This document shows, in pieces, positions 27,713 to 36,724 of a stretch of 64,000 bases of DNA. Position numbers and translations under genes: made by a program. The notes under the pieces were generated by a model. It saw nothing but the letters and a program-made list of their open reading frames with translations, searched no databases and was not told the DNA's origin. Every line of letters starts with the position of its first letter. Position 1 is the stretch's first letter. The stretch is taken from contig NZ_JACCBV010000001.1 of NCBI RefSeq assembly GCF_013409785.1, positions 1,550,001 to 1,614,000 on the forward strand, in the 5' to 3' direction. Origin of the DNA: Microbacterium immunditiarum. GTDB taxonomy: Bacteria; Actinomycetota; Actinomycetes; Actinomycetales; Microbacteriaceae.

Positions 27713-28132
27713 TTACTCGGTTCCGAGCTCGGCGCGCCACTCCTTCTCCTTCTGGACGTACTCGTTGTCGGAGAAGTCCGCGAAGTCGGACTCGTCGGTC
27801 GCGCGGCGCACCTCGAGCTTGTTGCCCGGCGTGAGCGGTGCGCGCTTGGCCCATTCGAGAGCCTCTTCGGGGGTCGCGGTCTGGATGATCCAGAACCCGT
27901 TGAACAGCTCGTGCACCTCGCCGTAGGGGCCGTCGCTCACGATCGGCGTCTCGCCCGAGAAGTCGACCACGTAGCCGGGCTCGGGGGCCAGACCGTCGCC
28001 CGACACCATCACGCCGGCCTTGATCATGGACTCGTTGTAGGCGCCCATCGCGTTGATGACGGCCTCGAAGTCCATCTTCTCGTAGTCCTCGACGGCTTCC
28101 TGGGTCGCCCGCATGATCAGCATGTGCTTCAT
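27713..28132 (-). CDS. DGPF/YCII-related domain protein, ECF42 partner
   Basis: 139 residues. The family motif appears as SDGPYGEVHELFNGFWII (Phe of DGPF replaced by Tyr); the N-terminus KHMLIMRATQEA is the common opening. YCII-like proteins have a ferredoxin-like fold and often a His/Asp pair of unclear role. It sits 25 bp upstream of the sigma factor, on the same strand, the arrangement typical for ECF42. GAAGGAACGAAACG precedes the ATG at 28132. Confidence 0.9.
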   Translation of the reverse strand: MKHMLIMRATQEAVEDYEKMDFEAVINAMGAYNESMIKAGVMVSGDGLAPEPGYVVDFSGETPIVSDGPYGEVHELFNGFWIIQTATPEEALEWAKRAPLTPGNKLEVRRATDESDFADFSDNEYVQKEKEWRAELGTE

Positions 28133-28294
28133 CGTTTCGTTCCTTCGTTCGGTTCCCTGTGGGGAGGCCGTTCGCCTCCTCTCACTATCGCGTCGAACGG
28201 CGACATCGGGAATCGACATCGAGTTCGAAGAATTTTCGGATGCCGGGTTTCAACCCCCTTGTGAGCGTGGAATGTCCCGGCTGAGAGTGGGCGT

Positions 28295-28678
28295 ATGACT
28301 TCCGTGATGAGTGAACTGCTGCGCCTCGAGATGGCCGGGTGGGAATCGCTGTGCGACGGCTCGGGCGACGACTTCTACCGTCAGATCATGACCGACGACG
28401 GCGTCATGGTGATCGCCGATGGCACGGTGCTCGATCGTGACGCGGTCGCCGAGTCGCTGCGCGATGCGCCGGCCTGGAGCTCGTACGAGATCTCCGACGA
28501 GCGGGTTGTGACGGTGGGTCCGGATGCCGCGGCGCTGGTCTACACGGGCCACGCGTCGCGCCCCGGCGACGAGGCTCCGTTCGTGGCGGCGATGTCGAGC
28601 GTGTACGTGAAGCAGGCGGGGGAGTGGCGGCTGGCGCTGTACCAGCAGACCCCGCTCGCCCCACCTCCCGGTCGCTGA
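28295..28678 (+). CDS. NTF2-like / DUF4440-type protein
   Basis: 127 residues. The sequence MAGWESLCDGSGDDFYRQIM, then DDGVMVIADGTVLDRDAVAE, then VYVKQAGEWRLALYQQTPL fits the small NTF2-like ligand-binding fold (DUF4440). Function unknown; these proteins frequently sit beside ECF sigma factors. It is divergent from the DGPF gene and ends just inside a long inverted repeat. Confidence 0.8.
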   Translation: MTSVMSELLRLEMAGWESLCDGSGDDFYRQIMTDDGVMVIADGTVLDRDAVAESLRDAPAWSSYEISDERVVTVGPDAAALVYTGHASRPGDEAPFVAAMSSVYVKQAGEWRLALYQQTPLAPPPGR

Positions 28679-28746
28679 GCGAGCGAAGCGAGACGAAGCG
28701 CCCCCCGTGGCGGCGCTTCGTCTCGTCCCTGCGCTCCTCGCTCAGC
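28669..28746. repeat. Long intergenic inverted repeat (GCTGAGCGAGC family), terminator-like
   Basis: CGGTCGCTGAGCGAGC, AAGCGAGACGAAGCGCC is the left arm (28669-28702); the right arm GGCGCTTCGTCTCG, then GCGCTCCTCGCTCAGC (28711-28745) is nearly its reverse complement. The stem of about 30 bp overlaps the stop of the NTF2-like gene and precedes the convergent oxidase stop, so it may act as a bidirectional terminator. Other copies are scattered through the window. Confidence 0.75.
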
Positions 28747-28771
28747 ATCCGGAGTATGCGCGCTCCGCTGC

Positions 28772-30151
28772 TCAGACCGGGTGCGCGGCCGCGAACATGT
28801 CGCTCGGGTCGAACCGGCGCTTCAGTTCGCGAAGGCGCTCAATGGCGATCCCGAAGCCGGCGTCGCGATCGACTCCGCCGCCGTCGATGAAGGTGAGCAC
28901 GAGGCTGTCGGCCCGCCAGGGCGCGAACATGGCGATGCCGGTCTGCACCGCGGCATCCGCGCCCGCCATCGCCTCGGGAACCGGCACCATCGCGAGCGTG
29001 TGCGCGAGGTAGGCGCCGTCGACCGATCCCACGGCTCCCGCGTGCGCCGGGCGCTGCGCGATCGCTCCGCCGAGGTGGCGCAGCTCGGTCATGAAGAGCC
29101 CGGGCACGTCGGCGGCCGCGAGGAAGGCCCCGACGGCGTCGGCGGGCAGGTCCGCGAGCACCGAGTGCACCGAGGCGGCGGGTGTCGGTCCAGGCGGGTC
29201 CATGTGGACGGCGACGAGTTCGGGCGACGGGATCCGCGTGAAGGTGTCGATCTCGGGTGCGAGAGCGCGGAGGGGTTCGAGAAGGGCGGATGCCGCAGCA
29301 TCCGTCTCGAGGATCGCCCCGTCGATCACCACGACCGAGCGTCCGGACAGGAACGGCGGAAGGTCGGGCATGGGCGGGAAGTTGATCACGCGCAGCGTCG
29401 TCGTCGCCGACTCGGGTGCGGTGGCGGTCCACGCCGCCCAGGCGTGCGAGACCTCGGCCGCGCGGGCGGCGTCCCAAAGCATCATGCCCGCGAACACGTC
29501 GGCGTACGGCAGCAGGTCGATCTCGAGCGAGACGACGACACCGAAAGCGCCGGCGCCGCCGCGCACCGCCCAGAAGAGGTCCGGGTCTTCATTCGCGCTC
29601 GCCCGCACGAGACGGCCGTCGGCGGTGACGAGCTGCACGGAACGCACCGCATTCACCGCGAGCCCGTGAGTGCGGGCGTAGAACGACAGCCCGCCGTTGA
29701 GCGCGTATCCGGCGACCGAGACGTCGCCCGCGCTGCCGTGGAGAGCGGTGAGGCCGTGCGGCGCCGCCGCTTCGAGCACGTCGTTCCACTGCGATCCGCC
29801 CAGCACGCGCGCGGTGCGGGTGTCGGCGTCGACGGTGACCCCGCGCAGGCCCGCGAGTGAGAGGAGCACGACATCGGAGAGGTCGGTGTCGGCGAGGGGT
29901 CCGGCGGCGTGCCCGGTCGACTGGGGTGCGACGCGGAGTCCGGATGCCGCGACCGCGCGCACCGCCTCGACGACCTCTTCGGCGGTCTCAGGCCGCACGA
30001 TCGCGAGCGGGCGCTGGTCGAACGCCACGTTCCACGGGATGCGGGCGTGGTCGTAGCCGGGGTCGTCGGCGACGATGACGCGATCGCCGAGCGTGCGCTT
30101 GAGCGCGGCGACGCGTTCGTCCGTCGTGAGGGTCGTATCGAAGACGGTCAT
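28772..30151 (-). CDS. FAD-binding oxidoreductase, berberine-bridge/PCMH type
   Basis: 459 residues. The FAD-binding PCMH domain is seen in RPETAEEVVEAVRAVAASGL, APQSTGHAAGPL (His for flavin attachment) and SAGDVSVAGYALNGGLSFY; then RGGAGAFGVVVSLEIDLLP. The second covalent-flavin Cys of berberine-bridge enzymes is absent (SAGDVSVAG), so attachment, if any, is through one residue. The C-terminus (RLRELKRRFDPSDMF) is the BBE-type tail. Substrate unknown. It is divergent from a LuxR regulator with a striking palindrome between them. Confidence 0.88.
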   Translation of the reverse strand: MTVFDTTLTTDERVAALKRTLGDRVIVADDPGYDHARIPWNVAFDQRPLAIVRPETAEEVVEAVRAVAASGLRVAPQSTGHAAGPLADTDLSDVVLLSLAGLRGVTVDADTRTARVLGGSQWNDVLEAAAPHGLTALHGSAGDVSVAGYALNGGLSFYARTHGLAVNAVRSVQLVTADGRLVRASANEDPDLFWAVRGGAGAFGVVVSLEIDLLPYADVFAGMMLWDAARAAEVSHAWAAWTATAPESATTTLRVINFPPMPDLPPFLSGRSVVVIDGAILETDAAASALLEPLRALAPEIDTFTRIPSPELVAVHMDPPGPTPAASVHSVLADLPADAVGAFLAAADVPGLFMTELRHLGGAIAQRPAHAGAVGSVDGAYLAHTLAMVPVPEAMAGADAAVQTGIAMFAPWRADSLVLTFIDGGGVDRDAGFGIAIERLRELKRRFDPSDMFAAAHPV

Positions 30152-30210
30152 CTGTTCTCCTGGTTCTCATGAATGGCCTCCGCCAGCATGGCGGTCCCGG
30201 CGTCGCCAGG

Positions 30211-30258
30211 CCATCCCAGGTCGAGAGGGATTACGGCTCTCCCAGATACCTGGGATGG
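30211..30258. promoter_or_regulatory. Perfect 11-bp inverted repeat between oxidase and LuxR genes
   Basis: CCATCCCAGGT (30211-30221) and ACCTGGGATGG (30248-30258) are exact reverse complements separated by 26 bp. Within the spacer GAGAG (30223-30227) and CTCTC (30238-30242) pair again. It lies 33 bp before the LuxR start and 59 bp before the oxidase start, so it is a likely operator for both, or a hairpin in the luxR leader. Confidence 0.6.
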
Positions 30259-30291
30259 CGGCGCGCCGGCAGGGGGGAGCACACTGGTGGC

Positions 30292-31425
30292 ATGACTTCG
30301 GCGCTGGCGATCGGTCGAGCGCGCAGCGACATCGATGTGATCTCGCGCGCCGGACTGCCGTTGCACCACTTCATGGACGAGGCGGCCGCGGCATTGCAGA
30401 GCGCCGTCCCGTTCGTCGCGGCATGCGTGTCGACGATCGACCCGGCCACGACGATGGTCTCCAGCTCGCGCAAGATCGGCGAGCTCGATGGCCGCAACGA
30501 GCAGGACCTCAGGTGGTCGCAGATCGAGTATGGCAGCGACGACCCGACCTCGATCACAGCCATCGTGGCGGCCGGACAGATCGCGGTCGGCGTGCAGCGC
30601 GTCACGCACGGCGTGCTCGATCGGTCGGTCCGCATGTCCGAGCTCATCGTGCCGCACTTCGACTTCCGCGACGAGGCTCGCGCCGTGTTCTCCGACCGCA
30701 ACGGCGCGTGGGGGCACATCTCCCTGTTCCGCGGCGACGACGATCCCGCGTTCGCGGTGGAGGAGCTCGACCTCCTCGCGGCGGTGGCTCCCGCGTTCAC
30801 GCGCGGCATCCGCACCGGACTGCTCGCACAGTCGAGCCGAACGGATGCCGCGACCGACGCCGGGCCGGCCGTGATGGTCTTCGACGCGCAGGACCGCATC
30901 GTGCAATCGACGCCCGGCGCGCAGGCTCATCTCGCGCAGATGTCATCCGTGCCGGGGATGGGGGATCCGCTGACATCGGTGCAGGCGCTCGTGAGCGGCG
31001 CGCGTCGCTTCGCTCGCGGAGAGATCGAACGGATGCCGCGCATCCGCGCCCGCACCTACGACGGCGTGTGGGTCGTGCTGCACGCCTCGCCGCTGGGCGG
31101 TGCCGGCGATCGCGCCGGCGATGTGGTCGTGACGATCGAAGAGGCGCGTCCGCAGGAGGTGATCGACATCGTGGCGGCGGCGTTCGGCCTCACCGCGCGC
31201 GAGCGCGATGTCGTCGCGATCGTGCTGCGAGGTGCCGACACTCGTGAGATCGCCGCCGAGCTTCACCTCTCGCCCTACACGGTGCAGGACCACCTCAAGT
31301 CGATCTTCGACAAGGCCGGGGTGGCCAGTCGGCGCGAGCTCGTCGCGCGCGTCTACTTCGACCAGTACCTGCCGCGCCGGGGCGAGGGCATCGGCCCGAG
31401 CGGGTGGTACGCGGGCGGCGGCTGA
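30292..31425 (+). CDS. LuxR family transcriptional regulator with GAF/PAS-like N-terminal region
   Basis: 377 residues. The first ~280 residues are a sensor region without a recognised exact family (AACVSTIDPATTMVSSS and VMVFDAQDRIVQSTP are PAS/GAF-like). The C-terminal HTH is LTARERDVVAIVLRGADTRE then LSPYTVQDHLKSIFDKAGV. The tail YLPRRGEGIGPSGWYAGGG is Gly-rich. It probably senses a ligand and controls the divergent FAD oxidase through the inverted repeat. The ATG at 30292 has a GGGGGGAG purine tract 13 bases upstream. Confidence 0.9.
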   Translation: MTSALAIGRARSDIDVISRAGLPLHHFMDEAAAALQSAVPFVAACVSTIDPATTMVSSSRKIGELDGRNEQDLRWSQIEYGSDDPTSITAIVAAGQIAVGVQRVTHGVLDRSVRMSELIVPHFDFRDEARAVFSDRNGAWGHISLFRGDDDPAFAVEELDLLAAVAPAFTRGIRTGLLAQSSRTDAATDAGPAVMVFDAQDRIVQSTPGAQAHLAQMSSVPGMGDPLTSVQALVSGARRFARGEIERMPRIRARTYDGVWVVLHASPLGGAGDRAGDVVVTIEEARPQEVIDIVAAAFGLTARERDVVAIVLRGADTREIAAELHLSPYTVQDHLKSIFDKAGVASRRELVARVYFDQYLPRRGEGIGPSGWYAGGG

Positions 31426-31429
31426 GCGA

Positions 31430-31483
31430 GCGGCCGCGCCGCGACCCCGGACGCTGAGCGAGCCGGAGGCGAGACGAAGCGCC
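31430..31483. repeat. Intergenic repeat (GCTGAGCGAGC family), two copies
   Basis: GCTGAGCGAGC occurs at 31431-31441 and again inside ACGCTGAGCGAGCC, GGAGGCGAGACGAAGCGC (31451-31482). Both are in the same orientation, so they form no stem together. They lie between the LuxR and erm stops. Confidence 0.6.
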
Positions 31484-31494
31484 CGCCCCGCTCA

Positions 31495-32268
31495 TCAGCC
31501 ACTGACCCCGCGCCACAGCGCCGCCCACTGCTCCGGCCGCAGGTCACGCGGGAGGCTGCATCCGTCGATGTCCGCGCCGCGCACCGCGGCTCGCGCCTGC
31601 CCGCGCGTCACGCGGGCGCGCTGCTGCACGAGAGCGACGAGCCCGTTGCCGCGGCCGGTGAACATGTCACGCACGAACCGCTCATACGCCGCCCGATCCC
31701 GCGGATCGACGAGCGGGGACCCCCGCCGCGTGATGCCGATGATGCCGCCGTCGACGCTCGGCACAGGACGGAAATGCCGCGCCGGCACCCGTCCGTGCAG
31801 CCGGAACTCGAACCACGGAGCGGCCTGCGCGCTCATCATGCTGCCGCCGCCGACGCCGGCGCGCTTGCGCGCGACCTCCCATTGGGTGAGGAGGATCGCG
31901 TGGCGCCAGGACCGGCGCGTCAGCATCCGTCTCATGATCGGCGTCGTGAGGTGGTACGGCACGTTGCCGACCACGACGGGGTGATCGAGCGGATGCCGCA
32001 GCGCATCCGCGTGCTGGATGCGGACGTCCGGCAGCCGGCGCCTCAGCGTGCGCACGCGATGCTCGTCGATGTCGATCGCGACGAGGGGCCGCCCGAGGCG
32101 GGCGAGCGGTGTGGTGAGGTCGCCGTCTCCCGCGCCGATCTCGAGGATCGTGCCCTCGGTGGACGCGACGAGGTCGACGATCGCGCGGATCGTCGGGCGA
32201 TGGATGAGGAAGTTCTGGCCGAGCTCGTGTCGGCCGCCGTTCGCGGAACGGCGAGGGTGGGTTCGCAT
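31495..32268 (-). CDS. erm: 23S rRNA (adenine-N6) methyltransferase, Erm family
   Basis: 257 residues. RHELGQNFLIHR is the Erm/KsgA N-terminal signature; the SAM site is ILEIGAGDGDLT and the catalytic motif is GNVPYHLTTPI. It methylates A2058 of 23S rRNA, giving macrolide-lincosamide-streptogramin B resistance. The start at 32268 follows a GGAG ribosome site that lies inside a hairpin. The 206-base leader holds a 24-codon peptide and three possible stems, strong signs of macrolide-inducible translation. Chromosomal erm genes are known in Microbacterium and relatives. Confidence 0.93.
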   Translation of the reverse strand: MRTHPRRSANGGRHELGQNFLIHRPTIRAIVDLVASTEGTILEIGAGDGDLTTPLARLGRPLVAIDIDEHRVRTLRRRLPDVRIQHADALRHPLDHPVVVGNVPYHLTTPIMRRMLTRRSWRHAILLTQWEVARKRAGVGGGSMMSAQAAPWFEFRLHGRVPARHFRPVPSVDGGIIGITRRGSPLVDPRDRAAYERFVRDMFTGRGNGLVALVQQRARVTRGQARAAVRGADIDGCSLPRDLRPEQWAALWRGVSG

Positions 32269-32273
32269 TGAGC

Positions 32274-32402
32274 GCTCCAAGGAGAAGGGTTGGAGCACCC
32301 CGATGCGGCGTCTGCCGAGAACCGGCGGAGGTGGGACGCGCGCCCGGGGTGCGAGGACTCCCGGATGACGGCGCTTACGCGAAGATCTGCGAGGGCGCCG
32401 TC
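32274..32402 (-). promoter_or_regulatory. erm translational attenuator (competing hairpins)
   Basis: Three perfect stems are readable in the leader. (1) GACGGCGC (32395-32402 in mRNA sense, overlapping the leader stop) pairs with GCGCCGTC (32367-32374). (2) GCACCCCG (32345-32352) pairs with CGGGGTGC (32295-32302). (3) GCTCCAA (32290-32296) pairs with TTGGAGC (32274-32280), which contains the erm Shine-Dalgarno. Stems 2 and 3 share bases at 32295-32296 and adjacent sequence, so forming one disfavours the other. A second GACGGCG inside the leader peptide gene can also pair with GCGCCGTC. Confidence 0.7.
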
Positions 32403-32475
32403 AGGCGCGGCGGTCGCGGATGTAGAAGTCGCACGCCGTCGTCAGCGCGCTCTTGATCATTCCCACGCGTGCCAT
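32401..32475 (-). CDS. erm leader peptide (24 aa)
   Basis: ATG to TGA, 24 residues, beginning MARVGMIKSALTTACDF and ending YIRDRRA. The Arg-Asp-Arg near the end fits the +X+ motif at which macrolide-bound ribosomes are known to stall. It lies 132 bases upstream of the erm start, and its stop codon falls in the first arm of the first leader hairpin. No strong ribosome site is visible before the ATG. No promoter was identified with confidence. Confidence 0.6.
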   Translation of the reverse strand: MARVGMIKSALTTACDFYIRDRRA

Positions 32476-32524
32476 GGTACCCGAGCTCTCACTACCCGGT
32501 CGCTGAGCTTGTCGGAGCGCGGTG

Positions 32525-33109
32525 CTACGCCGACCCGCTCCACGGCGCCGGGACGATCACCCACACGACACTCGCCGGCTTCCCGCCGTCGACGTACCAC
32601 GTGTGCGGCTCGCGCCCCGGGAAGGTCAGCGCATCGCCGGCGCCGAGCGTCACCGTCCGGTCCGAGAACCGCATCACGACCGTCCCCTTCACAACGTGCA
32701 GCACCTCGACGTCGCAGTTGATCGTGTAGAGCTCCTTGCCGCCGTGCGCGTCGGGCTCGAGCTCCGACCGCAGCAGCTGCACGCGGTGCTCGCTGCGCGG
32801 TGACATGAGCCGCTCCTCGGCGTGCACACCGCCGAGGTTGATGCGCGGCGCGTCGTCGTACGACACGCGCTGGATCTCGGGCTCCGCGAAGAGCGACCCG
32901 ATCGGCAGCGACAGCACCTGGCACAGCTGCACGAGCGTCGCGACGCTGGGGGAGGTCTCGTCGCGCTCGACGCGACTGAGGAAACCCTTCGACAGGCCGG
33001 TGGTCTCGGCGAGTCGGCCGAGCGAGAGGCCTTGGCCCGTGCGTGCCGCGCGCAGGCGGGCTCCGATCGGGGTGGCGTTGGCGTCGGCATCCGGATGAAT
33101 CGCGCGCAT
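32525..33109 (-). CDS. XRE family regulator with C-terminal cupin domain
   Basis: 194 residues. The HTH is LSLGRLAETTGLSKGFLSRV, then ERDETSPSVATLVQLCQVL; the cupin covers about 110-190 (YTINCDVEVLHVVKGTVVMR, GAGDALTFPGREPHTWYVD). Such regulators sense a small molecule through the cupin. AGGGAGAG precedes the ATG. It is divergent from the agmatinase gene, with 96 bp between, and most likely controls the ureohydrolase-permease-cyclase cluster. Confidence 0.9.
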   Translation of the reverse strand: MRAIHPDADANATPIGARLRAARTGQGLSLGRLAETTGLSKGFLSRVERDETSPSVATLVQLCQVLSLPIGSLFAEPEIQRVSYDDAPRINLGGVHAEERLMSPRSEHRVQLLRSELEPDAHGGKELYTINCDVEVLHVVKGTVVMRFSDRTVTLGAGDALTFPGREPHTWYVDGGKPASVVWVIVPAPWSGSA

Positions 33110-33124
33110 GTCTCTCCCTCGAAA

Positions 33125-33158
33125 GCCCGCGGCTCTTGACGCGGATGCGACCGCGGGC
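33125..33158. promoter_or_regulatory. Inverted repeat and promoter between XRE and agmatinase genes
   Basis: GCCCGCGG (33125-33132) and CCGCGGGC (33151-33158) are perfect reverse complements 18 bp apart. A TTGACG at 33136-33141 with TACCGT at 33160-33165 (18-bp gap) is a plausible promoter toward agmatinase; the repeat surrounds the -35. Operator of the XRE protein is the simplest reading. Confidence 0.5.
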
Positions 33159-33205
33159 GTACCGTGGCCGCAACGTTGCTCACAGAGTATCGAAAGTTGT
33201 CAAAT

Positions 33206-34159
33206 ATGCAACCCTCCGGAACGCCGGAGCCGCGCGGCCCGGTCGACGCGAGCGTCGTGCCGCGGTTCGCGGGCATTGCGACGTTCGCGCGCCTGCCGCG
33301 GCTCGACGAGGTCGAGAAGGCGGATGTCGCGATCGTCGGCGTCCCGTTCGACAGCGGTGTCAGTTACCGTCCCGGTGCGCGCTTCGGCCCGGCGCACGTG
33401 CGCGAGGCGTCGCGTCTGCTGCGTCCGTACAACCCCGCGCAGGAGGTGTTCCCGTTCGGCGCACAGCAGGTCGCCGACGCCGGAGACATCGCCGCGAACC
33501 CCTTCGACATCGCGGCCGCGGTCGCCGAGATCGAGGCCGGTGCGCGTGAGCTGCGGAGCCGCGCCGACCGCCTCGTCGCGATCGGCGGTGACCACACGAT
33601 CGCCCTGCCGCTGCTGCGCGAGGTGACCTCGGTGCACGGTCCGGTCGCGGTGCTGCACTTCGACGCGCACCTCGACACGTGGGACACGTACTTCGGTGCC
33701 CCGACCACCCACGGCACGCCGTTCCGTCGCGCGTCGGAGGAGGGGCTCATCGACCTCACCGCGAGCATGCACGTCGGCATCCGCGGCCCCCTCTACGCGA
33801 AGAGCGACCTCGAAGACGACGCGCGCCTCGGCTTCGCGATCGTCACGAGCGAGTACGTCGAGGAGCACGGCGTGCCGTCGGCGGTCGACCGCATCCGCGC
33901 CCGCGTCGGCGACAAGCCGCTCTACATCTCGATCGACATCGACGTGCTCGATCCCGCGCACGCGCCGGGAACGGGAACGCCCGAGGCGGGCGGGCTCACG
34001 AGTCGTGAGCTGTTGCGGATGCTCCGTGCCCTCACCGATCTGCGCATCGTCGGCGCCGACGTGGTCGAGGTCGCGCCCGCGTACGACCACGCGCAGCTCA
34101 CGGCGGTCGCGGCGAGCCATGTCGTGTACGAGCTGCTGAGTGCGATGGCGCCGCGGTAG
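33206..34159 (+). CDS. speB: Agmatinase-like ureohydrolase
   Basis: 317 residues. All manganese-ligand motifs are present: [25 protein letters not shown] and [31 protein letters not shown] matches agmatinases more than arginases. It would hydrolyse a guanidino compound to urea plus amine; agmatine, guanidinobutyrate and guanidinopropionate are all possible. The start is the ATG of MQPSGTPE; no Shine-Dalgarno is evident, so the mRNA may be leaderless or nearly so. First gene of the cluster. Confidence 0.9.
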
Positions 34160-34206
34160 GCGCATCCGCTGATTCGTCTTCGGAATCGTCTTCAAAGGAG
34201 AAGCAC

Positions 34207-34596
34207 ATGACGACACCCGACCCCGCGGCCGTCGAAGCCGCCGCTGCCGCGATCGTCGACGCGTTCGCCGCGACCGACGCCGAGCGGTACTTCGCGGCGT
34301 TCTCGCCGGATGCGACGTTCGTGTTCCATCCCGAGCCGCGACGCCTCGAGAACCGAGGTGAGTACGAGCGCCTGTGGGAGGGGTGGGTCGCCGACGGCTG
34401 GCGTGTGACGTCGTGCACGTCGAGCGACGCGCGCGTGCAGGTGTTCGACGGCGGCGCGATCTTCTCGCACACCGTCGACACGTCGGTCGAGACATCCGAC
34501 GCCCCCGAGTCGTATCGCGAGAGGGAGACGATCGTGTTCGTCGTCGACGGCGACGAGCTGGTTGCCGTGCACGAGCACCTGTCGCCCTTCGCCTAA
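34207..34596 (+). CDS. NTF2-like / DUF4440-type protein in ureohydrolase cluster
   Basis: 129 residues. The pattern AAAAIVDAFAATDAERYFAA, then FSPDATFVFHPEPRRLENRG, then YRERETIVFVVDGDELVAVH is an NTF2-like fold. AAAGGAGAAGC gives a good ribosome site. It lies 47 bp after the ureohydrolase. A small ligand-binding or isomerase role in the same pathway is possible; no catalytic residues can be assigned. Confidence 0.8.
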   Translation: MTTPDPAAVEAAAAAIVDAFAATDAERYFAAFSPDATFVFHPEPRRLENRGEYERLWEGWVADGWRVTSCTSSDARVQVFDGGAIFSHTVDTSVETSDAPESYRERETIVFVVDGDELVAVHEHLSPFA

Positions 34597-34601
34597 CCGC
34601 C

Positions 34602-34644
34602 CCGTCGCTGAGCCCCCACCCCGGTCGCTGAGCCTGTCGAAGCG
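34602..34644. repeat. Intergenic repeat, GTCGCTGAGCCTGTCGAAGCG type, two copies
   Basis: CCGTCGCTGAGC (34602-34613) is followed by CCCGGTCGCTGAGCCTGTCG then AAGCG (34620-34644). The second is the form widespread between genes in Microbacteriaceae and relatives. It sits between the NTF2-like and permease genes. A partial copy is also at 32495-32520 (CCCGGTCGCTGAGCTTGTCG), near the erm leader. Confidence 0.7.
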
Positions 34645-34695
34645 TCGCCCCACAACTCAACCCCCCGACAACCCGAACCCGAAGGAGCCCCAACG

Positions 34696-36087
34696 ATGTC
34701 GCTCTACTCCCGCCTCGAGCAGCGCCTCGAAGCCCAATCCGATGACGCCGGCCCCCTCGTCGGCACGTATTCGACCGGCCGCCTGTTCATGATCTGGCTG
34801 GCGGCGAACCTCGTCGTCACGACGCTGCTGACGGGAACGCTGTTCATCCCCGATGTGAACTACGGCCTCGTGCTGCTGCTGATCGTGCTCGGCACGGTGA
34901 TCGGCGCGGCGGTGCTCGTCGCGGTCGGCACGATCGGTCGCCGCACGGGGCTGCCGACGATGGCGCTCACGCGTGGTCCGTTCGGAACGCGCGGGAGCCT
35001 GCTGCCGGTCGCTGCGAACGTGATCATCCTCATGGGGTGGAGCTGGGTGCAGGCGATGCTCGCGGGCATCGCGCTGGACTACATCGTCATGACGTTCACG
35101 GGCTTCTCGTCTCCGGTCATCTTCGCGGTGCTGTGCCAGACGATCGTCGTGATCCTCGCGATCTTCGGGCACGCGGGAGTCGCGCGCGTCGAGCCGTGGT
35201 TCGCGGCCGTGATCCTCGCGATCGCCGCATACATCTTCGTGGTGGCGTTCTCCACCTATGGTCCGGCCGAGTTCACGTCGATCGCGGCATCCGCTGAGCC
35301 TTACTACGACGCAGGTCTCGTATTCGACGTCGTGCTCGCGACGGCGATCTCATGGACCGTCCTCTCGGCCGACTTCAATCGCCTCGCCGGCAGCACGCGC
35401 GCGAGCGTGATCGGCTCGGGCGTCGGCTACACGCTGTCGACGGTCATCTCCATGTCGCTCGGCGCGACGGCGATGGCGTTCGTGATCCTGAGCGGGGGAG
35501 AGGCGATTCCGTTCGACCCGGTGACGATCATCGAGCCCTTCGGCTGGGCCTTCGGCGTCGCGATCTTCCTGTCGGTGATGGCGACGAACACGATGGTGGT
35601 GTACGGCATGGTGACGACGGTCGTGAACGCGATCCCGGGTCTGCGGATCAAGTTCCTGCCCGCCGCGCTCATCCTCGGCGTCATCTCTATCCTCGGAGCG
35701 ACGCTGTTCGGCCTGCTCGACCAGTTCACGAACTTCCTCGTGACGATCGGCGCGCTGTTCGCCCCGATCTTCGCGATCATGATCGTGGACTACTACTTCA
35801 TCAAGCGCTCGTCGTACGACCGCGACATCCTGAATGTGAAGGGCGGTCGCTACTGGTACACGGGCGGCGTGAACTGGCTCGCGATCGGCTCGTGGTTCGT
35901 CGGCGCCGGACTCGCGTACGTGTGGGCGTACGTGTGGCCGCTGCCGTTCGGCTCGACCGCGCCCGCGTTCATCGTGACGTTCGTGCTGTACCTCGCGGTG
36001 TCGTGGCACCGGCGTCCGAAGGGCGAGTTCACGCCGGTCGGCAATCTGGCCGAAGAGGCGGATGCAGCCCCCGCAGTGAAGGCATGA
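34696..36087 (+). CDS. NCS1-family permease (cytosine/purine/hydantoin type)
   Basis: 463 residues with about 12 hydrophobic segments. Early motifs GRLFMIWLAANLVVTTLL and GRRTGLPTMALTRGPFGTRG are characteristic of cytosine/purine permeases; SWTVLSADFNRLA and IMIVDYYFIKRSSYDRDIL also fit. NCS1 proteins are Na+ or H+ symporters for nucleobases, allantoin, hydantoins or thiamine. In this cluster it may import the substrate of the ureohydrolase or cyclase. GAAGGAGCCCC precedes the ATG. It ends 7 bp before the cyclase gene. Confidence 0.9.
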   Translation: MSLYSRLEQRLEAQSDDAGPLVGTYSTGRLFMIWLAANLVVTTLLTGTLFIPDVNYGLVLLLIVLGTVIGAAVLVAVGTIGRRTGLPTMALTRGPFGTRGSLLPVAANVIILMGWSWVQAMLAGIALDYIVMTFTGFSSPVIFAVLCQTIVVILAIFGHAGVARVEPWFAAVILAIAAYIFVVAFSTYGPAEFTSIAASAEPYYDAGLVFDVVLATAISWTVLSADFNRLAGSTRASVIGSGVGYTLSTVISMSLGATAMAFVILSGGEAIPFDPVTIIEPFGWAFGVAIFLSVMATNTMVVYGMVTTVVNAIPGLRIKFLPAALILGVISILGATLFGLLDQFTNFLVTIGALFAPIFAIMIVDYYFIKRSSYDRDILNVKGGRYWYTGGVNWLAIGSWFVGAGLAYVWAYVWPLPFGSTAPAFIVTFVLYLAVSWHRRPKGEFTPVGNLAEEADAAPAVKA

Positions 36088-36094
36088 TGACCGG

Positions 36095-36724
36095 ATGCTG
36101 CGAGACCTGAGCCACCCGATCCGCGACGGCATGATGGTCTACCCCGGGGATCCCTCGGTGTCTGTGCGGCCGGCTCTGTCGTTGGAGGCCGATGGCGTGG
36201 AGGTCGCGCGCATCGACATGGGTTCCCACACGGGGACCCATGTCGATGCGCCGGCGCACACCGTGGCGGGTGGGCGGACGATGGCTTCGGTTTCGCTCGA
36301 TGAGCTCGTGGGGGAGGCGGTGGTGTTGCGGCTCGGTTCGGCCGCTGCTGGTTCTTCGTACGGGGTGGGCGAGCTGACGCTCGACGGCGGGGCAGTGCCG
36401 GACGAGCTGCCTCGGATCGTGATCGTCGACACCGGGTGGGCCCAGTGGTTCGGGTCGGAGCGGGCGTTGCAGCATCCGTTCATGTCCGCTTCTGCGGCGC
36501 GAGAGTTGTGGGCGCGGGGGATGCGCGTGCTCGCGGTGGACACGTTGAGTCCGGATGAGACGGGTGGTTCGGCGTTTCCTATTCACGACGTCGTGCTCGG
36601 TGGGGATGGGCTCATCGTCGAGAACGTGTGCGGGTTGGAGGAGCTGCCGGGGCGGGTGGAGGTGGGGTTCTTCCCGTTACGTTTGGAGGGGGATGGGGCG
36701 CCGGTGCGGGGGGTGGCGTTCTAG
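36095..36724 (+). CDS. Cyclase-family metal-dependent hydrolase (kynurenine-formamidase-like)
   Basis: 209 residues. The metal site HxGTHxDxP is SHTGTHVDAPAH; RDLSHPIRDGMMVYPGDP is the family N-terminus, and VLAVDTLSPDETGGSAFPIH contains the later conserved His. Relatives hydrolyse formamides, isatin or cyclic amides. It is tightly linked to the NCS1 permease. Substrate unknown. Codon use late in this gene (many GGG and GTG) is somewhat different from its neighbours. Confidence 0.88.
   Translation: MLRDLSHPIRDGMMVYPGDPSVSVRPALSLEADGVEVARIDMGSHTGTHVDAPAHTVAGGRTMASVSLDELVGEAVVLRLGSAAAGSSYGVGELTLDGGAVPDELPRIVIVDTGWAQWFGSERALQHPFMSASAARELWARGMRVLAVDTLSPDETGGSAFPIHDVVLGGDGLIVENVCGLEELPGRVEVGFFPLRLEGDGAPVRGVAF

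What the first reader, a model, noticed from the sequence alone, without database searches (positions are those of the whole stretch)
32268..32475. erm gene with a leader peptide and a readable translational attenuator
A 24-residue leader ends in YIRDRRA (Arg-Asp-Arg, a +X+ macrolide stalling motif). Downstream are three perfect stems; one hides the erm ribosome site and another overlaps its 5' arm, so stalling could switch between them. I do not recognise this leader sequence from the known erm leaders.
Basis: partly seen in the sequence, partly recalled or inferred. Interest (0 to 1): 0.75.

Follow-up and report, generated by a model that had tools for sequence, protein, structure and literature searches.

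The report
Leaderless macrolide-sensing switch before erm
In front of this macrolide-resistance gene lies a tiny gene that probably stalls ribosomes when the drug is present and so switches the resistance gene on; its start codon seems to sit at the very first base of the message, and the same arrangement recurs before most of the actinomycete erm genes examined.

Summary
On the minus strand an erm gene (ATG 32268, 257 aa) follows a short leader ORF ending Arg-Asp-Arg-Arg-Ala and three perfect stems, one hiding the erm Shine-Dalgarno (SD) site. Comparison strengthens this and changes the start. The leader most likely begins at GTG 32466 (21 codons), not ATG 32475, which overlaps a -10 box (TACCAT). 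In 78 of 78 genus loci where the leader was found, TANNNT lies 6-7 nt before its start codon, and in 0 of 78 an SD-like motif does, so the leader is probably leaderless. Of 169 distinct actinomycete erm loci, 150 have such a leaderless Arg/Lys-X-Arg/Lys leader (controls: 4 of 845 shuffles, 5 of 1800 real windows), among them erm(X), erm(36), erm(50), erm(51) and erm(55). The switch helices 3:4 and 2:3 covary and exclude each other. Best reading: drug-induced translational attenuation of the ErmDL-like +X+ kind, in a leaderless variant. Transcription start and stalling were not measured; folding models show only a modest, unspecific shift toward the open state.

The parts
32474..32479 (-). -10 box TACCAT, 7 nt before the leader GTG; probable promoter of a leaderless message
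   Evidence: TANNNT 6-7 nt before the leader start in 78 of 78 genus leaders; no -35 conserved and no TTGACA-type promoter found by the scan
32401..32466 (-). leader ORF, GTG to TGA, 21 codons, VGMIKSALTTACDFYIRDRRA
   Evidence: coordinates; relatives; 0 of 78 have an SD-like motif before it
32410..32418 (-). codons of Arg-Asp-Arg, the +X+ motif, two residues before the stop
   Evidence: 123 of 131 distinct leaders have exactly two residues after the motif
32395..32403 (-). segment 1b with the leader stop codon, 5' arm of the 9-bp stem
32366..32374 (-). segment 1', 3' arm of the 9-bp stem
32360..32364 (-). segment 2 (CCGGG), pairs with segment 3
   Evidence: 2:3 covaries
32344..32352 (-). segment 3 (GCACCCCGG), pairs either with 2 or with 4
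32292..32303 (-). segment 4 (TCGGGGTGCTCC), pairs either with 3 or with the SD
32274..32278 (-). segment 5 (GGAGC), Shine-Dalgarno site of erm
   Evidence: SD-like motif before erm in 76 of 78
31495..32268 (-). erm, 23S rRNA methyltransferase gene, 257 codons and stop
   Evidence: upstream in-frame starts TTG and GTG exist

Best explanation
A macrolide-inducible translational attenuator whose leader ORF is leaderless. Shown from sequence: a -10 box 7 nt before the leader GTG and no SD; a conserved leader end R-D-R-R-A-stop; an RNA in which segment 4 can pair with 5 (the erm SD; OFF) or with 3 (ON), while 3 can instead pair with 2. Inferred: transcription starts at the GTG and ribosomes load on the 5' end; without drug they finish the 21 codons, 2:3 and 4:5 form, and erm is not translated; with a macrolide in the exit tunnel the ribosome stops with the Asp codon in the P site, its front edge reaches the stop-codon stem, 3:4 wins over 2:3 plus 4:5, and the erm SD opens. 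How the stop-codon stem passes the signal on to segment 3 is the least certain step.
For: Leader type in 78 of 81 genus erm loci. TANNNT spacing in 78 of 78, SD-like motif 0 of 78. Across actinomycetes 150 of 169 distinct erm loci against 4 of 845 shuffles and 5 of 1800 real windows. Motif exactly two residues before the stop in 123 of 131 distinct peptides while X varies. Column-based pairing 3:4 96.6% against 93.7% in shuffles and 2:3 96.4% against 90.3%, 0 of 500 shuffles reaching either. One 3:4 pair switches A-U/G-C with at least 11 changes on the tree and stays paired in 112 of 113. Masking at the Asp codon raises P(3:4) by more than 0.05 in 33 of 78 and lowers it in 15; for the window 3:4 rises 0.61 to 0.88 and 4:5 falls 0.65 to 0.11. 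ErmDL stalls with the X codon of Arg-X-Arg in the P site (passages of PMC8298421). No intrinsic terminator.
Against: No transcription start, stalling or induction was measured. No -35 is conserved and the promoter scan found none. With 36 nt of erm included, the SD stays paired in all states (mean unpaired 0.056 free, 0.050 masked at Asp). A ribosome at the stop codon shifts the balance about as much (mean P(3:4) 0.40 against 0.35 at Asp and 0.28 free; the window 0.97); in energy terms it is slightly more ON than at Asp (27 of 78 more ON at Asp, 40 less). Helices 1b:1', 1a:1b and 4:5 are nearly invariant and give no clear covariation; 1':3' has no support. At the base of segment 3 that faces both partners, segment 4 changes more often than segment 3 (16 against 5 changes) and 6 of 113 are unpaired.
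Confidence: 0.72

Rival explanations
1. Transcriptional attenuation: stalled ribosomes on the leader prevent premature termination before erm, as proposed for mef/msr leaders and for the mycobacterial whiB7 leader.
For: A uORF-linked transcriptional attenuation of whiB7 is discussed for mycobacteria (passages of PMC4128351); Rho-dependent sites would not show in my scans.
Against: No stem followed by a T run in 31300-32700; the conserved 4:5 stem holds the SD itself.
Confidence: 0.12
2. The drug response is at the promoter (for example WhiB7), and the leader is a minor or relic part.
For: erm(37) and erm(41) of mycobacteria are in the WhiB7 regulon (passages).
Against: No conserved block upstream of the -10 box among 78 loci; conservation lies in the leader end and in the alternative helices.
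Confidence: 0.07
3. The stalled ribosome mainly protects the 5' end of the message, and stability rather than SD opening raises Erm.
For: For ermB, expression was reported to follow mRNA stability (title and abstract start of PMC5118997); a leaderless leader puts the ribosome at the 5' end; my models do not show clear SD release.
Against: It does not explain the covarying, mutually exclusive helices 2:3 and 3:4.
Confidence: 0.09

Closest known systems
ermD leader ErmDL (Arg-Leu-Arg, +X+ class)
   Same: Arg-X-Arg motif in a short leader before erm; expected stop with X in the P site (passages of PMC8298421)
   Different: here X is Asp, the motif is followed by Arg-Ala-stop, the start is leaderless; stalling untested
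ermC/ermB translational attenuators
   Same: leader ORF plus alternative hairpins, one hiding the erm ribosome site (PMC11264731, abstract and passages)
   Different: leader without SD, other stall motif, and five alternating segments with 3 choosing between 2 and 4
leaderless polycysteine short ORFs of mycobacteria
   Same: leaderless short ORF acting as attenuator (title only, reference list of PMC9031893)
   Different: senses cysteine, not a drug; different downstream genes
leaders of erm(X), erm(36), erm(50), erm(51), erm(55)
   Same: leaderless +X+ leaders by the same rule (L117-L121)
   Different: shorter or differently ending peptides; their RNA switches were not analysed here

Membership tests
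Erm 23S rRNA methyltransferase (NF000499) | score over the curated cut-off | tested here: met
   238.9 bits, cut-off 212
Erm 23S rRNA methyltransferase (NF000499) | not the housekeeping RsmA/KsgA | tested here: met
   TIGR00755 133.3 under its cut-off 171; a second RsmA-family gene in the genome
Erm 23S rRNA methyltransferase (NF000499) | methylates A2058 and gives resistance | not testable with these tools
   needs an assay
erm translational attenuator | short leader ORF directly upstream on the same strand | tested here: met
erm translational attenuator | SD of erm hidden in a stem that excludes an alternative stem | tested here: met
erm translational attenuator | a stalled ribosome in the leader opens the erm SD | tested here: inconclusive
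   modest, unspecific shift in folding models; SD remains mostly paired
+X+ (ErmDL-type) leader | Arg/Lys-X-Arg/Lys in the leader | tested here: met
+X+ (ErmDL-type) leader | macrolide-dependent stop with X in the P site | not testable with these tools
   needs toeprinting
leaderless mRNA | -10 hexamer 6-7 nt before the start codon and no SD | tested here: met
   78 of 78 and 0 of 78
leaderless mRNA | mapped transcription start at the start codon | not testable with these tools
   needs 5' end mapping
transcription attenuator with intrinsic terminator | GC stem followed by a T run before the gene | tested here: not met
   0 found in 31300-32700

The most novel reading that the evidence does not exclude
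Leaderless +X+ leaders are the general way in which actinomycete erm genes sense macrolides: the drug-sensing ORF begins at the first base of the message, so promoter, start codon and stall motif form one compact sensor without 5' UTR or SD. In the RDRRA group the read-out is a covarying RNA switch in which one segment chooses between two partners.
Probability: 0.7. Interest if true: 0.65.

Novelty: new variant of a known kind. Interest (0 to 1): 0.6.

Why it matters
A 2024 survey of erm upstream regions concluded that uORFs are not universal among erm genes and show no universal conservation pattern (PMC11264731, section 15 read in full). Among the actinomycete loci tested here, 150 of 169 share one design: a leaderless start and an Arg/Lys-X-Arg/Lys motif, mostly two residues before the stop. 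If right, inducibility of many actinomycete erm genes could be predicted from sequence, and it becomes testable whether macrolide-bound ribosomes load on leaderless messages well enough to act as sensors.

Tried and rejected
Start at ATG 32475: rejected; it overlaps the -10 box and relatives point to the start 21 codons before the stop. ATG 32460 (19 codons): rejected; GGGA abuts it directly and most relatives have no ATG there. Intrinsic terminator and TTGACA-type promoter: none in 31300-32700. Rfam: no match at gathering threshold in the window.

A relay in which only a ribosome at the Asp codon gives ON (1a:1b, then 1':3' with 2:3, then 4:5) was attractive because a 16-nt footprint from the Asp codon ends at the UGAC after the leader. 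It is not kept as a claim: masking at the stop codon gives a similar shift and 1':3' has no column support.

C before the leader start (138 of 149) agrees with a start-site preference reported for mycobacteria (passage), but the erm start shows it too (73 of 78), so it is not used as evidence. Helix counts take partners by best complement and are partly circular; one search uses columns of a sequence-only alignment (77 distinct rows), with many gapped cells (616 cells counted for 3:4).

Rows dropped: one search left out two loci with under 150 nt upstream (L031, L160), loci whose match starts after residue 30, and repeated upstream sequences. One search found 21 rows without a leader, 149 distinct leaders, 114 with the segment-4 motif and 113 with a 3:4 score of 14 or more. 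The 19 exceptions were read: eight have the same kind of leader with spacing 8 (L098, L099, L103, L139, L162, L219, L223, L225); erm(46) L116, L096 and L213 have a leaderless ORF without +X+; L126, L134, L143 and L212 have a +X+ ORF without TANNNT at 5-8 nt; L133, L168, L185 and L221 have none that I recognise. Known to fit poorly: L079 and L080 lack a good 1b:1'.

Papers: ten searches ran, all in open-licence PMC text, at most 20 papers listed each; none of the listings showed a paper on leaderless erm leaders, and one search found none at all. Subscription papers are not held.

Full report
What is there. The window is G000:C1:1550001-1614000 of a 3.9-Mb single-contig genome. On the minus strand an erm gene runs from ATG 32268 to 31495. 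It passes the broad Erm model, scores under the cut-off of each allele-specific Erm model listed, and under that of RsmA/KsgA; a second RsmA-family gene lies elsewhere in the genome. The best plasmid match is 63.9% identical (Kocuria rosea).

The leader. Of 295 genomes of the genus, 93 have a match at E <= 1e-20. I took 81 loci with 54% identity or more as Erm (L003-L083) and set aside the matches of 30-36% identity as RsmA-like, without testing each. A leader ending R-[D/E/L]-R-[R/S]-X or LTRLRSA was found in 78 of 81. The others are L031 (73 nt upstream on its contig) and L082 and L083 (partial or interrupted erm), though one search prints an ORF ending FRDRRS for L083. In 78 of 78, TANNNT lies 6 or 7 nt before an RTG that gives a leader of 19-22 codons: 61 have the 21-codon start as only candidate, 4 have it among others, 13 have 19, 20 or 22 codons. 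An SD-like motif stands before the leader in 0 of 78 and before erm in 76 of 78. Leaderless genes of mycobacteria are described the same way: -10 hexamer, start codon at +1, no SD (passages of PMC4633059). No -35 is conserved, a consensus scan found no promoter of the TTGACA type, and no transcription start was measured.

How general. I added homologues from 398 genomes of the family (30 loci returned, eight matches not fetched), 394 of the class (30 loci returned, fifteen matches not fetched), ten plasmids and 80 named contigs (the best 80 of 518). Of 169 distinct erm loci, 150 have an ORF of 8-40 codons with Arg/Lys-X-Arg/Lys and TANNNT 6-7 nt before its ATG or GTG. The same rule is met by 4 of 845 dinucleotide shuffles and by 5 of 1800 other 450-nt windows of the same loci. 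By identity to the window's Erm: 60% or more 106 of 114, 50-60% 28 of 35, 40-50% 15 of 19, under 40% 1 of 1. Eight of the 19 exceptions have such a leader with spacing 8. erm(36), erm(X), erm(51), erm(50) and erm(55) are among those that fit (L117-L121); erm(46) (L116) has a leaderless ORF without +X+. Of 131 distinct peptides, 123 have exactly two residues after the motif; X is Asp in 85 and otherwise Ile, Leu, Glu, Pro and others. The loci are related by descent and the sample leans to close relatives, so the counts are not independent events.

The RNA. Segment 1b pairs with 1' across the leader stop codon, 2 with 3, 3 with 4, and 4 with 5, the SD. On a sequence-only alignment of 77 distinct rows, 3:4 is paired in 96.6% of cells (shuffles 93.7%) and 2:3 in 96.4% (shuffles 90.3%), 0 of 500 shuffles reaching either. 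1b:1' is 96.7% against 96.2% (24 of 500 reach it); 1a:1b and 4:5 hardly vary; 1':3' equals its shuffles. One base of segment 3, C or U, is matched both in 2 (G or A) and in 4 (G or A, with some G-U), which suggests that both alternatives are kept. On a FastTree of 113 loci with Fitch counts, the pair of the third base of segment 3 with segment 4 (A-U or G-C) needs 11 changes, as many as that base alone, and 112 of 113 stay paired. At the base that faces both partners segment 4 changes more often (16) than segment 3 (5), and 6 of 113 are unpaired.

Does stalling open it? ErmDL stalls with the X codon of Arg-X-Arg in the P site (passages of PMC8298421). Masking the RNA to 16 nt from the Asp codon changes mean P(3:4) over 78 loci from 0.28 to 0.35, and to 0.45 one codon later; 4:5 goes from 0.69 to 0.61 and 0.49. 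At the Asp codon 33 loci rise by more than 0.05 and 15 fall. For the window 3:4 goes from 0.61 to 0.88 and 4:5 from 0.65 to 0.11. Against a specific effect: a ribosome at the stop codon gives 0.40 on average and 0.97 in the window; the median energy shift at Asp is -1.2 kcal/mol against the free RNA (49 of 78 more ON, 22 less) but +0.4 against the stop codon (27 more ON, 40 less); and the SD itself remains mostly paired in the models. So I claim a conserved switch whose balance moves the expected way on average, not a computed proof of induction.

Surroundings. The LuxR-type regulator, XRE-cupin regulator and arginase-family protein beside erm in the window were found in 0 of 29 genus relatives within the flanks held (up to 1.5 kb), while leader and stems are kept. 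The leader-end 23-mer, up to 2 mismatches, occurs at 48 places in 46 of 149 genus genomes: 43 places lie beside an erm, five do not and differ by 1-2 bases; of these five I looked at one (G044), which precedes an unrelated gene.

Compared with what is known. It works like the erm translational attenuators and carries an ErmDL-type motif; it differs in the leaderless start, in the motif's place at the leader's end and in the RNA architecture. A survey of 35 known erm genes and homologues found uORFs not universal and without a common pattern (PMC11264731, sections 6 and 15 read in full). Leaderless short ORFs as cysteine attenuators are known in mycobacteria (title only). The paper searches named under Tried and rejected showed no report of leaderless erm leaders.

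Noticed in passing
L081, L082, L083: In three genus genomes the erm match is split or partial (G197, G174, G263); L081 keeps an intact-looking leader and L083 an ORF ending FRDRRS. Described only.
   Followed up: no
window 32431-32450: A hairpin of 8 pairs with a 4-base loop is predicted inside the leader codons themselves; similar GCGCC...GGCGC stretches are visible by eye in relatives, not counted.
   Followed up: no
149 leader loci; window 32463-32461: The second codon is Gly in 110 of 149 leaders; why is unknown.
   Followed up: no
window 32498-32513: GACAAGCTCAGCGACC just upstream of the promoter occurs at 5 places with at most 1 mismatch in the genome (2 in the reversed control), one of them 2.1 kb away.
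   Followed up: partly
window 27713-36724: Neighbouring genes: YCII-like, FAD-binding, LuxR-type, XRE-cupin, arginase family, SnoaL-like, cytosine/purine permease family and cyclase family proteins; the stretch from the XRE-cupin gene on could be a nitrogen-compound catabolic cluster (inference).
   Followed up: no
L102, L106, L107, L224: In some loci the leaderless +X+ leader starts 270-417 nt before erm instead of the more usual 80-260 nt, so the RNA between must be built differently.
   Followed up: no
G044 (L238): A one-mismatch copy of the leader-end 23-mer precedes an unrelated gene with no erm homologue beside it; taken as chance.
   Followed up: yes
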